Assembly: GCF_029227915.1 (NCBI RefSeq)
Contig: NC_079876.1
Coordinates: forward strand, 18,228,001-18,292,000
Origin: Hydractinia symbiolongicarpus
Lineage: Eukaryota > Cnidaria > Hydrozoa > Anthoathecata > Hydractiniidae
Length of the DNA stretch: 64,000 bases
Reading direction: 5' to 3'
Below the pieces are notes generated by a model that did no database searches, had not been told where the DNA came from, and was given only the letters and a program-made list of their open reading frames with translations. The translations under genes were made by a program, and so were the position numbers. This document shows positions 38,308-49,915 of this stretch, piece by piece (the stretch's first letter is position 1; every line of letters begins with the position of its first letter).

Positions 38308-38362
38308 CATAGGAGATTATTTTTGTTCCGCTACAGCATTCGTTTGTATTACTTAGCAGAAC

Positions 38363-41300
38363 ATGGCTAACAGGCAACTGCGAAGTGAAGTTTTGAAACG
38401 CGCCCTGAAGGCATGCATCGTCCAACCGGTAATAAGAAAATATCAGGTAGTAGCCGTTCGTGCGATGTGGGGAAGTGATGTTGATGCCCGCGAGGTCATT
38501 TGGGGCAAGAGAATGCAGATGGAGAACATATTGCTTAGCAACGAACAAGTATCCTGTTTTTTTTCTTGTATTACCTATATGGCCAGACCTCGTAAGAGAA
38601 AGTCGATGAGGAATGAAGGGGAGGAAGAAGAAGGAGCCGACTCTAGCAGTGAAGGTGATAACAGAAACGGCGCAAATGCGCATGAAACATTTCCTGGCAT
38701 TTCTTTCTGGATCGCGTGCGACTTGCCAAACTGTACCTTAAGTCAATTTGAAACAAATTTGTCGAAGTCTTTTATGCAAGCCGGGTTGAATTTAACAACG
38801 TGCAATGCTATACAGACAAGAGGTAAATACTTGAACCTTTTAGTACTTGAAATACTGTCAATGTTTTTCGAATATTTTACGCCACATTTGATATTTGTAG
38901 GCAAAACCAGTGCATTGCAAGCATTCTCAGGATCGTTATACCAAGTCTTGAAAGACCACAATAGGGAAGAAGCAAAACGGATAGTTGAGATATCCCATCG
39001 CACAATGATTAGGAGTGCAGCTAGAGATGAAGGTGTTCAACTTGACCACGTTGCTGTAATGGAAAGCGAACAGTACTCGATGAAACCCTGTCAGTTAATT
39101 CTAACAAAAAATATTGATAAAGAGGTATATCAAGATGTAATTCGTGGTTTATCCGAAATCAGATTTACATCGCTTGATTTAAAAGTAATTGATAAATCGG
39201 AAGGTAAGTTGCCACGAACAAATTTACTTACTTCTCCAGTAATAAGACTAAGTTTTTTGTAGAAGTTAAAACATGTTTTTACATTGTTACACGCATAGGC
39301 ACAGAAGTAACTATTCCCGTTAAGCCAACTAACAAACTTTGTCAATCCGTGGATATAGTTCGAAGGATGATGGAGAGGAATAGCTTTGGACTGTGCAATG
39401 GAGGTGTATACAAAAAAATAGGAGAAAGCAGATACACATACGTTTACTGTTGTTCGGTGAAAAGCTATCTCTATCGCTCGTTGAAAAACAAAGCAATCGC
39501 CAACGAAATTACGCCAAATTTACGAGAGTTGGTATTTTTGCTGTCGGACGGCGAGTGTCAAATAATTGATCAAATAACTCTGGATTACAATTACATTGAA
39601 TGCTTGCCAAATGGAGTTTGTTATAACATCGCCAAAAAATGTTTCGATGTCAAGCCAAATTTAAAGGGATCTCCCCGAGCATTCGTACGGTACTTTCATC
39701 GTGAGGGAAAAAATCCCGAACCAAAGCCATTTATAGAAGGTAATTGTTTTTACTTTTCTTTTAACGCGTTAAGAAAATGTGTTTTTTTTCTTTTAACGCG
39801 TTGTAACATATCAAGGTGGTAGTTGTAACGTGTTGTAACGTATTGTAACTTGTTGTAACGCATTGTCAGTGAAAAAAATGTTGGCTCTTTTTCTTTTAAC
39901 ACGTTGTAACATATCAAGGTGGTAGTTGTAACGTGTTGTAACGTATTGTAACTTGTTGTAACGCATTGTCAGTGAAGAAAATGTTTTTTTTTATCTTTTA
40001 ACGCGTTGTAACATATCAAGGTGGTAGTTGTAACGTGTTGTAACGTGTTGTAACTTGTTGTAACGCATTGTCAGTGAAGAAAATGTTTTTTTTTATCTTT
40101 TAACGCGTTGTAACATATCAAGGTGGTAGTTGTAACGTGTTGTAACGTATTGTAACTTGTTGTAACGCATTGTCAGTGAAGAAAATGTTTTTTTTTTATC
40201 TTTTAACGCGTTGTAACATATCAAGGTGGTAGTTGTAACGTGTTGTAACGTATTGTAACTTGTTGTAACGCATTGTCAGTGAAGAAAATGTTTTTTTTTA
40301 TCTTTTAACGCGTTGTAACATATCAAGGTGGTAGTTGTAACGTGTTGTAACGTATTGTAACTTGTTGTAACGCATTGTCAGTGAAGAAAATGTTTTTTTT
40401 TTATCTTTTAACGCGTTGTAACATATCAAGGTGGTAGTTGTAACGTGTTGTAACGTATTGTAACTTGTTGTAACGCATTGTCAGTGAAGAAAATGTTTTT
40501 TTTTATCTTTTAACGCGTTGTAACATATCAAGGTGGTAGTTGTAACGTGTTGTAACGTATTGTAACTTGTTGTAACGCATTGTCAGTGAAGAAAATGTTT
40601 TTTTTTATCTTTTAACGCGTTGTAACATATCAAGGTGGTAGTTGTAACGTGTTGTAACGTATTGCAACTTGTTGTAACGCATTGTCAGTGAAGAAAATGT
40701 TTTTTTTTATCTTTTAACGCGTTGTAACATATCAAGGTGGTAGTTGTAACGTGTTGTAACGTATTGTAACTTGTTGTAACGCATTGTCAGTGAAGAAAAT
40801 GTTTTTTTTTATCTTTTAACGCGTTGTAACATATCAAGGTGGTAGTTGTAACGTGTTGTAACGTATTGTAACTTGTTGTAACGCATTGTCAGTGAAGAAA
40901 ATGTTTTTTTTTATCTTTTAACGCGTTGTAACATATCAAGGTGGTAGTTGTAACGTGTTGTAACGTATTGTAACTTGTTGTAACGCATTGTCAGTGAAGA
41001 AAATGTTTTTTTTTTATCTTTTAACGCGTTGTAACATATCAAGGTGGTAGTTGTAACGTGTTGTAACGTATTGTAACTTGTTGTAACGCATTGTCAGTGA
41101 AGAAAATGTTTTTTTTTATCTTTTAACGCGTTGTAACATATCAAGGTGGTAGTTGTAACGTGTTGTAACGTATTGTAACTTGTTGTAACGCATTGTCAGT
41201 GAAGAAAATGTTTTTTTTTATCTTTTAACGCGTTGTAACATATCAAGGTGGTAGTTGTAACGTGTTGTAACGTATTGCAACTTGTTGTAACGCATTGTCA

Positions 41301-46943: not shown

Positions 46944-49915
46944 TCCGATTTCTTTAAAGTTCTCTAGAAACAAAATTTATAGAAAGTTTATAACAATATT
47001 AGTTTTTAACAAAGCATAGAAAGTAGGATAAAAAAAAGAATTCATTTGAATAAAAAAAGAATCCTATTTACTATAAATTTAAAGTTTGAACAACTTACCT
47101 TATACTTTACTTCGTATACAAAGTATTAGTTGAGAAACTTCTCATTAAAACAATTCCTTTTTATAATGAAGGACGCTCTCCATAGCAGAGTTAAGGTAGC
47201 AGCGAAAACGGAATTATTTCAAGTGGCACAATATAAATTAGACTGCAGAGTATTCATAATTAAAGACAATTAATTCTGATATATATCACAACCAAATCTC
47301 GGTAGAGGTTAAGGGAAATAGCAAAGCATGGTTTTTTTGTTATGTGGTGTCATTCGTAAAGAGTGAGCCAATAACATAAATTTTTAGGATTTACGTACAG
47401 GGCACTTTGATTACACTCATAAGCGCAAGAAATGCACACAAATTTTGGTACTTATTACAAAAATACCACCGGGTTTGTTTACAAAAGAGAACAGCATCGA
47501 CGTTGTTTTATGTTGTTCTTACAGGTAGCTTAGCTACCCTATATAGCTACATTAAGGATTAAACTAGCATTTATTACTTAATACTCAGTAAAATAGGTCA
47601 AGTTTAAATATTAATTTTTTTCGCTATAGCTAGCTAGACTAAGTATGAAAGGACAAGGCTGAGCTTTTTAGCTGGGTTTAAAATCAAAACTTAAGAGGAA
47701 AATTACATCGCAGTTTTTAAAATTATATTACACATACTACAGAACACCTGCGGGAAATCTCATTGTTCATCAAGTTACCCCATATGGGTAATATGGAAGA
47801 TTTCTTCATAAAAAACCTCAGAAACCTTTTCAAGTGGATTACTTTCACATTAACAAAAATTGAAAATTTTTAAGATGAACTTTTGCGATTTTGTCATTTA
47901 TTAGTTTTCAAATTTTTTGCTGGAAATTTATAAGGTTTAAACCCATGTCGCACAGTAACTTTTTCGTCCTTATCATAATGTGATAAACATAAGCTATGGA
48001 ACAAATTTTGCAGGAAAATAAAAACACATAAATAGAAAAAGGTTGTTATAAAAAAAATATAAATTAATTTCAAACCGATTAGTCCCTGCAGCCATTTTGG
48101 TGTCAGCAGTATGAAAAACTATGCTAAAACCATAATAAGTAAAAGTCCTATTACTTCAGTAAAAATTGAAATAATGACTTGAAACTTAGTATTATATGTT
48201 TTTAGACCAGTTTGATGAAATGAACCCAAAAAATTTTTTTGCTACTATTATAGTTCTTGAGTTTCTGAATTTAGCCATTTTTGGGGACGCCGATAAACCT
48301 TTTTTGAAAGCATATTATTTTGACAAGCCATGTGTACAGATAACATTCAAAGTGATTCTCAGGATTTAAAATAATTCAAACAGATAAAATGTGTCCCAGG
48401 TTTAGGACCATATACCTTATCCAGCTCTATAAATACAAAGTTGTTAGAAGTTATTTTTTGTCCACCTGGATCTGCAACACGTTTACTTGCACTAATCGCT
48501 CAGCCTGGTGCCACTCACAATTAATTTTTGAATATCTACAGGAACTTATTATGCAAAATGAAAAATGCTAAACAACTGTATTTGCTTTGCAGAAGTAACA
48601 ATAGGCTTCATCATAAGTCCTGTGAATGTTGGTTTATGAAAAATGTATTATACCTTTATGCTATAAGCACTCCACTGGATTTGTAACACATTACACTAAG
48701 TGTCCTCCGTATGACACAGTTTACCCTTTACTAAGTCTTAACCTGGACAGAGACTTTACGTCTTCCGGCTCCAAGCGAATATTACTTCAGGCTATACTTT
48801 CCAAAATTTTGTTATTTCATAAAAGAAACCTGAAAATCTACAAATATTTATTTATGAAAAACAGGTTTCTGTTCGATAAAAGAAACCTGAACATTTGCAG
48901 AAATTTATTTATGATTTATTTAGGTTTCTGTTTGTCGTGACAACATATTTAACCAACATGCAATGCCTTGCACACCTAACTAGCTATATACTCAAGTCTT
49001 GACTGTTCACTGTTATGGGAGGTCCAAATTGCTAGCAAGTAGCTATCTTTATTTAAAATGACAGAATGCCTTGAAAAATCTTTTGTATAGCTAGCCTCAT
49101 AAAACTAATATATTTAGCTCTTGTACTTTATCACTTAATTATTTAATAACAAATGTGCCCCTGAAGTGCTGGCATGGTATTAGCTAGGTAGCTTAAAATC
49201 ACAAAATAAATATTATCCAGATGTGACCATCCCTCATCATCAGACATCAGAAAGGCGTTTCTGTTCTTTACTTCTCATTCTGAGGTACCTCAAATTCTTG
49301 TAAATCCAATGAAAAAAAATTACTAAGACTTCCTCTCCTTTCCCTTGCACGACTCATGGCATTTCTCAGCATGTCTTCAGTTCGAAGCCACGATTCCTTA
49401 GCTTCCAACTGCGTCTCGTTCACAAGTTTCAGCGCTAGCCAATGTGATGGAAAACGTCGAGGAACCCTGGGTAACTTTGAAAAAATGTGGTTCTGCCTTA
49501 TGATTTTCAGATTTTTGCTGCTAATATCAGCATATTTTAGCCCTTGAGTGCCACACCTCCGTATATATAGGAGTTAATTATCTTTAAATAACTATTCCTC
49601 AAGATAATCATTTCGCATATATTATTGTTATGATATATAAAAGAATTCAACGGAACAAATAGAGTGGAACGATATATACCGTCACATAAATTCCATCAAA
49701 TTCCCTATGGGAACGACACGTTCTTGTCTTGTGAGTAACAATAGAACAATACATTCCGCTTTTATAACAATGTTTTAATAAGTTGTTAAAGAACACCAAG
49801 TTCCTTAAAAATGGTTCTTTTTTAAAAAATTGGAACATGTAAAGTATTTAATGTGTTTAGGGTGTAAGATAATCGCACATAGAATCACGGACCATTATAA
49901 TTTCATACGCTATAT
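46944..49915. other. Gene-free stretch after the recombinase gene
   Basis: The first ~200 bases probably contain the recombinase gene's 5' intron and untranslated exon. Beyond that no supported gene. A short repeat with AGAAACCTGAA/AGGTTTCTG boxes is at 48826-48935, and AGCTAGCTAG runs occur near 47628. Confidence 0.45.

What the first reader, a model, noticed from the sequence alone, without database searches (positions are those of the whole stretch)
38308..47200. Candidate new mobile element: SF3 replicative helicase plus tyrosine recombinase
Seen: an intact 865-codon spliced gene with Walker A GPPDSGKT, Walker B MDEW and ITTN motif C; an intact convergent tyrosine recombinase gene with R/K/R/H/Y motifs; a small gene between; two matching heptamer arrays. 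Known: SF3 helicases replicate small DNA viruses and virus-like elements; Crypton-type recombinases move elements without terminal repeats. Inferred: together they could form an element that amplifies its own DNA (perhaps as a circle) and reintegrates by site-specific recombination. Cryptons as I know them carry only the recombinase, so this set looks undescribed. No capsid, polymerase or HUH nickase gene is visible.
Basis: partly seen in the sequence, partly recalled or inferred. Interest (0 to 1): 0.93.

Follow-up and report, generated by a model that had tools for sequence, protein, structure and literature searches.

The report
Jumping DNA with helicase and recombinase
A marine hydroid genome carries a young, multi-copy 9-kb jumping DNA element that encodes both a virus-like DNA-unwinding enzyme and a DNA-splicing recombinase, and it inserts itself into simple TAA repeats, sometimes as head-to-tail chains that point to a circular intermediate.

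Summary
The window lies in Hydractinia symbiolongicarpus. The SF3 helicase gene (7 exons, 865 aa), a small gene and a convergent tyrosine-recombinase gene form one unit: 25 of 25 near-full recombinase hits have the helicase within 3.5 kb in the same arrangement. The true ends are 38307 and 49913; a later 2.3-kb insertion (47265-49583) sits inside this copy. Copies differ by about 0.2%, and 13 of 21 examined keep both large genes open. All junctions read join at ATAA; 30 of 31 target sides lie in (TAA)n. Three loci carry head-to-tail copies joined through a single ATAA, as a circle junction would look. The recombinase model matches XerA, Cre and lambda Int, plus a TRF1-like Myb domain; the helicase resembles D5-type and parvovirus SF3 helicases. 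Two arrays hold 104 and 53 copies of one heptamer in opposite orientations and look like iterons. Not shown: circles, replication, transcription, or linkage of the two genes in another species. Gene content fits neither Cryptons nor polinton-like viruses; the papers searched did not describe it.

The parts
37791..38306 (+). left target microsatellite (TAA)n, ending in the ATAA joint (38303-38306)
   Evidence: TRF array; 20 of 20 left junctions read, five of them tandem joints, end in ATAA
38307..38362 (+). left end of the element (starts CCATAGGAG)
   Evidence: same start in 19 of 20 copies read, CCATGGGAG in L028
38363..43638 (+). SF3 helicase gene, exons 38363-38822, 38901-39203, 39299-39739, 42009-42167, 42239-42385, 42471-42653, 42734-43638; 865 aa
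   Evidence: Walker A/B and motif C; weak profile matches to PPV_E1_C, DUF5906, Parvo_NS1 and phage primases; model resembles D5-type and NS1 helicases
39771..41955 (+). array 1: 102-bp unit x 21.4, heptamer TTGTAAC mostly at 10-bp steps within a unit, inside intron 3 (39740-42008)
43726..44795 (-). array 2: 122-bp unit x 8.8, same heptamer in opposite orientation
44920..45258 (+). small gene, 112 aa, with SUMO-interaction-like motifs; deleted in the four C4 tandem copies
45297..46943 (-). tyrosine recombinase, 548 aa: C2H2 zinc finger, core-binding and catalytic domains, C-terminal TRF1-like Myb domain
47265..49583 (.). later 2.3-kb insertion inside this copy, TTAAA on both sides; no match in the 20 other copies; not part of the element
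49584..49913 (+). right end of the element (ends CATACGCTAT)
   Evidence: same end in 18 of 19 copies read, CATACGCAAT in L017
49914..50198 (+). right ATAA joint followed by the target microsatellite

Best explanation
It is an autonomous DNA transposon of about 9.3 kb. Shown: three genes and two iteron-like arrays between fixed ends occur as one recently spread unit; junctions are at ATAA, nearly always inside (TAA)n, and in the copies read always in one orientation; some copies are joined head to tail through one ATAA. Inferred: the tyrosine recombinase excises the element as a circle joined through CGCTAT-ATAA-CCATAGG and integrates circles by site-specific exchange at ATAA in TAA repeats or at the joint of a resident copy. 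Also inferred: the SF3 helicase, with its N-terminal alpha/beta domain, binds the phased heptamers and opens an origin so that host polymerases copy the circle, as in E1- or T-antigen-driven episomes (recalled). Multimers or repeated integration then leave tandem copies.
Confidence: 0.78

Rival explanations
1. It is the capsid-less remnant or satellite of a virus lineage (polinton-like virus, virophage or another SF3-bearing DNA virus) that keeps replication and integration genes and may borrow a helper's particles.
For: SF3 helicases and tyrosine recombinases both occur in polinton-like viruses and virophages (PMC4642659 and PMC12220804, passages). The helicase model is nearest to D5 primase-helicases and NS1 among viral models.
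Against: Outside genes and arrays less than about 1 kb is free between the ends, too little for a capsid gene. No relative of either protein was confirmed among viral contigs in two scans.
Confidence: 0.14
2. A tyrosine-recombinase transposon that moves by simple excision and integration; the helicase is cargo and does not replicate it.
For: The recombinase alone can explain ends, joints and tandem copies; more recombinase than helicase relatives were found, and some recombinase pieces lack a helicase nearby.
Against: Helicase exons are open in 14 of 21 copies and the motifs are conserved to Clytia; the heptamer arrays are what an initiator would need; pure cut-and-paste raises copy number poorly (general knowledge).
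Confidence: 0.12
3. A DDE-type or host activity moved the unit and ATAA is a 4-bp target-site duplication; the recombinase is not the mover.
For: ATAA lies on both sides, like a duplication.
Against: No third enzyme gene fits between the ends and the two ends as read are not inverted repeats of each other; the only recombination enzyme is the tyrosine recombinase.
Confidence: 0.03

Closest known systems
Cryptons (CryptonA and others; Kojima and Jurka 2011, PMC3212892, passages seen)
   Same: Eukaryotic DNA transposon with a tyrosine recombinase; a circular intermediate is proposed; fungal ones have 4- or 6-bp direct repeats at the ends
   Different: Animal and cnidarian Cryptons are described as encoding only the recombinase and no terminal repeats were found in them; the word helicase does not occur in the main text. 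Here a helicase, a small gene and iteron-like arrays; microsatellite target; recombinase with C2H2 finger and Myb domain
Polinton-like viruses and virophages (PMC4642659, PMC12220804, passages seen)
   Same: SF3 helicases and tyrosine recombinases both occur in these groups (whether in one genome was not checked); circular donor proposed
   Different: They carry capsid and packaging genes and are larger (14-40 kb in the abstract of PMC12220804); here about 9.3 kb without room for a capsid gene
Endogenous nimaviruses of crustaceans (PMC10871703, passages seen)
   Same: Tyrosine recombinases with a C2H2 domain in viruses that insert into simple repeats, with concatemers or episomes inferred from reads
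   Different: Large viral genomes; targets are telomere repeats (TAACC)n or 28S rDNA; sequence kinship of the recombinases not tested here
Integrating phage satellites and genomic islands of bacteria; yeast 2-micron plasmid (recalled, no call)
   Same: Works like: replication and tyrosine recombinase in one mobile unit
   Different: Bacterial or plasmid systems; no membership implied

Membership tests
Tyrosine recombinase superfamily | R-K-R-H-Y active-site residues with typical spacing | tested here: met
   R304, K331, R403, H428, Y437 in 31-32 of 32; the position three before the second Arg is Thr (31) or Ser (1), not His; spacing compared from memory with lambda Int and Cre
Tyrosine recombinase superfamily | Core-binding plus catalytic fold | tested here: met
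   [not shown]
SF3 helicases | Walker A, Walker B, motif C | tested here: met
   GPPDSGKT, MDEW, ITTN; key columns invariant in 9 of 9 aligned rows
SF3 helicases | Match to curated SF3 profiles | tested here: inconclusive
   PPV_E1_C in 5, DUF5906 in 4, Parvo_NS1 in 3 of 17 members at E up to 1, best E 1.4e-4, beside weak matches to unrelated P-loop and other families; the window protein is below the DUF5906 cut-off; phage primase families best 1.7e-6
Crypton | Recombinase is the only or main gene, no replication gene | tested here: not met
   Helicase in the same unit in 25 of 25 near-full loci
Crypton | Short direct repeats at the ends (fungal Cryptons; none found in animal ones) | tested here: met
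   ATAA on both sides
Crypton | Recombinase falls inside the Crypton clade | not tested
   No Crypton reference set at hand; hhalign with a second recombinase-like ORF of the window gave probability 4%
Polinton-like viruses and virophages | Capsid and packaging genes | tested here: not met
   Remaining ORFs between the ends are 153 aa or less and overlap genes or arrays; free space under about 1 kb
DIRS/Ngaro retrotransposons | Reverse transcriptase | tested here: not met
   No ORF and no room for one between the ends
HUH rolling-circle elements | HUH nuclease motif | tested here: inconclusive
   No conserved HUH seen in the N-terminal domain of the rows that have it; its ferredoxin-like fold (model residues 44-155) gave only generic matches

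The most novel reading that the evidence does not exclude
A new class of animal transposon: a self-replicating circle (an integrating plasmid of animals) with its own SF3 initiator helicase, iteron origin and tyrosine recombinase, without capsid or polymerase, that uses TAA microsatellites as harmless landing sites and has relatives in other hydrozoans and in marine metagenomes.
Probability: 0.45. Interest if true: 0.92.

Novelty: new variant of a known kind. Interest (0 to 1): 0.82.

Why it matters
If the inferred replication is real, this is a transposon that multiplies as an episome before landing, a strategy known (recalled) from bacterial islands and from viruses but, in the papers searched here, not described for a capsid-free animal transposon. 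Copies are young and several are open in a laboratory hydroid, so the model can be tested directly. It could link recombinase transposons with small SF3 viruses, and the recombinase is a candidate for insertion at TAA repeats.

Tried and rejected
Single-copy host genes: rejected, 22 exact Walker-A hits and 25 near-full recombinase hits. (TAA)n as part of the element: rejected, tandem joints hold only ATAA and the right flank of L020 has no TAA tract. Tandem copies by unequal exchange alone: disfavoured, see the joint argument. Small gene as essential for every copy: not supported, the C4 copies lack it; it is open in 14 of 21 copies.

Led nowhere: viral contigs, 421 and 50 stretches matched a pattern and none was confirmed as a relative; solved structures by sequence, helicase none and recombinase TRF/Myb and a few chance-level rows; paralogous empty sites, a 44-bp right flank shared by L009 and L013 without a shared left flank. 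SUMO-interaction-like motifs: 4 overlapping matches in the small protein, reached by 5 of 1000 shuffles; in 13 helicase tails the observed count was reached by 13 to 1000 of 1000 shuffles. Foldseek against PDB was never accepted. A search of the genome with the Clytia recombinase P0104 did not complete, so diverged recombinase families without helicase in this genome remain untested; the end-pattern searches for gene-less derivatives did not complete either. Papers: ten searches; none of the listed titles or starts of abstracts describes such an element (one search listed 20 of 478 papers, 20 of 22). Passages of PMC11071296 on animal viruses were seen and describe no such element. Subscription journals and Repbase were not searched.

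Full report
Where it is. The window is G000:C2:18228001-18292000 of a 480.9-Mb assembly. The recombinase record P0001 is named Hydractinia symbiolongicarpus and its longest contig, 42,572,105 bases, has the length of contig C1 here, so the genome is that species.

The recombinase (548 aa) has a C2H2 finger, a two-domain tyrosine-recombinase fold and a C-terminal Myb domain like that of TRF1. The model (mean pLDDT 81.5; loops 331-337 and 428-438 below 50) matches XerA, XerH, an integron integrase, Cre and lambda Int; the first 32 rows are tyrosine recombinases. Active-site residues are present in 31-32 of 32 relatives; the 32 were chosen from the 120 listed of 354 hits. Phage_integrase was not among the 25 of 26 Pfam families shown.

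Arrays. Intron 3 of the helicase gene holds 21.4 copies of a 102-bp unit; a second array of 8.8 units of 122 bp follows the gene. Both are built of one heptamer, mostly at 10-bp steps within a unit, 104 copies one way and 53 the other way, against 7 in 51.4 kb elsewhere in the window. This is the anatomy of iterons; binding is not shown.

One mobile unit. A Walker-A pattern gives 22 exact hits and a backward control none. DNA searches gave 43 recombinase and 34 helicase matches; by my reading 25 and 27 of these are near full length. All 25 near-full recombinase hits have the helicase exon in the same relative strand, 1.6-3.5 kb apart start to start. Among the shorter pieces, recombinase pieces at five places (C3:18271903, C7:18135512-18136345, C1:11128643, C1:8958647, C11:25056585) have no helicase match within 6 kb, and one helicase piece (C7:16664729) has no recombinase match. 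I fetched 20 of the 21 Walker-A loci other than the window's own; the one on C15 was left out. Copies share the start CCATAGGAG (19 of 20 read; CCATGGGAG in L028) and the end CATACGCTAT (18 of 19 read; CATACGCAAT in L017). Flanks are mostly unrelated; three pairs share short repeats (L009/L013 right, L011/L023 left, L020 left/L024 right). The window's copy is split by a 2.3-kb insertion that found no match in the 20 other stretches.

Target and joints. Of 20 left and 19 right junctions read, all hold ATAA next to the element. Eight of these 39 readings are tandem joints (five left, three right); the other 31 are target sides. Of the 31, 30 lie in TAA tracts: left 90-510 bp in 14 copies and 63 bp in L028; right 15-279 bp in 14 copies and about 13 bases in L021. 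The exception, the right side of L020, runs from ATAA straight into other DNA. Orientation is constant in the copies read. Six of 15 left target joints (L009, L010, L011, L012, L014, L019) carry TAT before ATAA; this matches the circle joint and may mark an exchange a few bases further in. Right joints do not vary in this way, which I cannot explain. Five joints CGC-TAT/AAT-ATAA-CC exist in the genome: three on C4, one on C9, one on C10. A head-to-tail joint with one ATAA is what integration of a circle at a resident copy, or of a dimer, would leave.

Age and integrity. Over 5772 columns the median difference is 0.23% (17 copies, 136 pairs; L020 excluded and L021, L024, L028 dropped for gaps). 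Of 21 copies (20 plus the window), codon projection finds the helicase open in 14, the recombinase in 17, the small gene in 14, and both large genes in 13. This count does not test start codons, splice sites or stops inside gaps. L024 fails the helicase count because one exon did not align, and plain translation finds a stop in the recombinase of L025, which would make it 12. L014's stop count is an artefact of a trimmed alignment. The four C4 copies share a deletion of the small-gene region. A diverged locus (L031) keeps pieces of helicase, small-gene region and recombinase 3' part in order, 67-85% identical.

Spread. Recombinase relatives: 354 at E up to 0.001; among the 120 listed, names are given only for Hydractinia and Clytia, and most come from ENA sources. 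Helicase relatives: 17 in two searches (the second scored only the best 7994 candidates), eight named Clytia, one Hydractinia, eight unnamed. Both genes thus exist in Clytia; whether they are linked there was not testable. The Clytia helicase P0123 finds in this genome the loci of this family and one further place, C3:18450146-18451516, where the DNA search showed no recombinase (45 of 143 candidates scored).

Known kinds. Cryptons share the recombinase but not the helicase (PMC3212892, passages). Polinton-like viruses and virophages have both enzyme types but also capsids (PMC4642659 and PMC12220804, passages). Crustacean nimaviruses share repeat-targeted tyrosine recombinases with a C2H2 domain and show concatemers or episomes (PMC10871703, passages). 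The Hydractinia genome paper has neither Crypton nor helicase in its main text (PMC11067881, word counts and passages). The combination found here was not described in the listings of the ten paper searches named under Tried and rejected.

Verdict. A real, young mobile element that carries its own genes; integration through a circle by its own recombinase is likely; self-replication by its own helicase is plausible and untested. I file it as a new variant of tyrosine-recombinase DNA transposons, not as a Crypton, since the gene content was tested and does not fit.

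Noticed in passing
window 29025-31277 (-): A 750-aa open frame that looks like a second, different tyrosine recombinase (motifs by eye); no Pfam match at E up to 0.1, hhalign to the element's recombinase 4%. A 188-bp x 8.8 tandem array (31843-33490) lies beside it.
   Followed up: partly
window 25598-26641 (-): 347-aa frame with RAG1 importin-binding (E 2.5e-8) and RING finger matches: RAG1-like N-terminal part.
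   Followed up: partly
window 24364-25035 (-): DUF1280 match, E 4e-12.
   Followed up: no
window 47265-49583: 2.3-kb insertion with TTAAA on both sides and imperfect short inverted ends; probably another transposon.
   Followed up: partly
L029 about 1-3260 and L030 about 1055-4420 (C6): Two 98%-identical repeats that hold the helicase 3' end, array-2 repeats, the small-gene region and the recombinase 3' end, beside other DNA: a chimeric derivative.
   Followed up: partly
[not shown]
   Followed up: partly
L015-L018 (C4:15229139-15263462): Four head-to-tail copies that all lack the small-gene region and are each other's nearest relatives.
   Followed up: yes
C3:18450146-18451516: A diverged helicase locus found with the Clytia protein; its surroundings were not fetched.
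   Followed up: no
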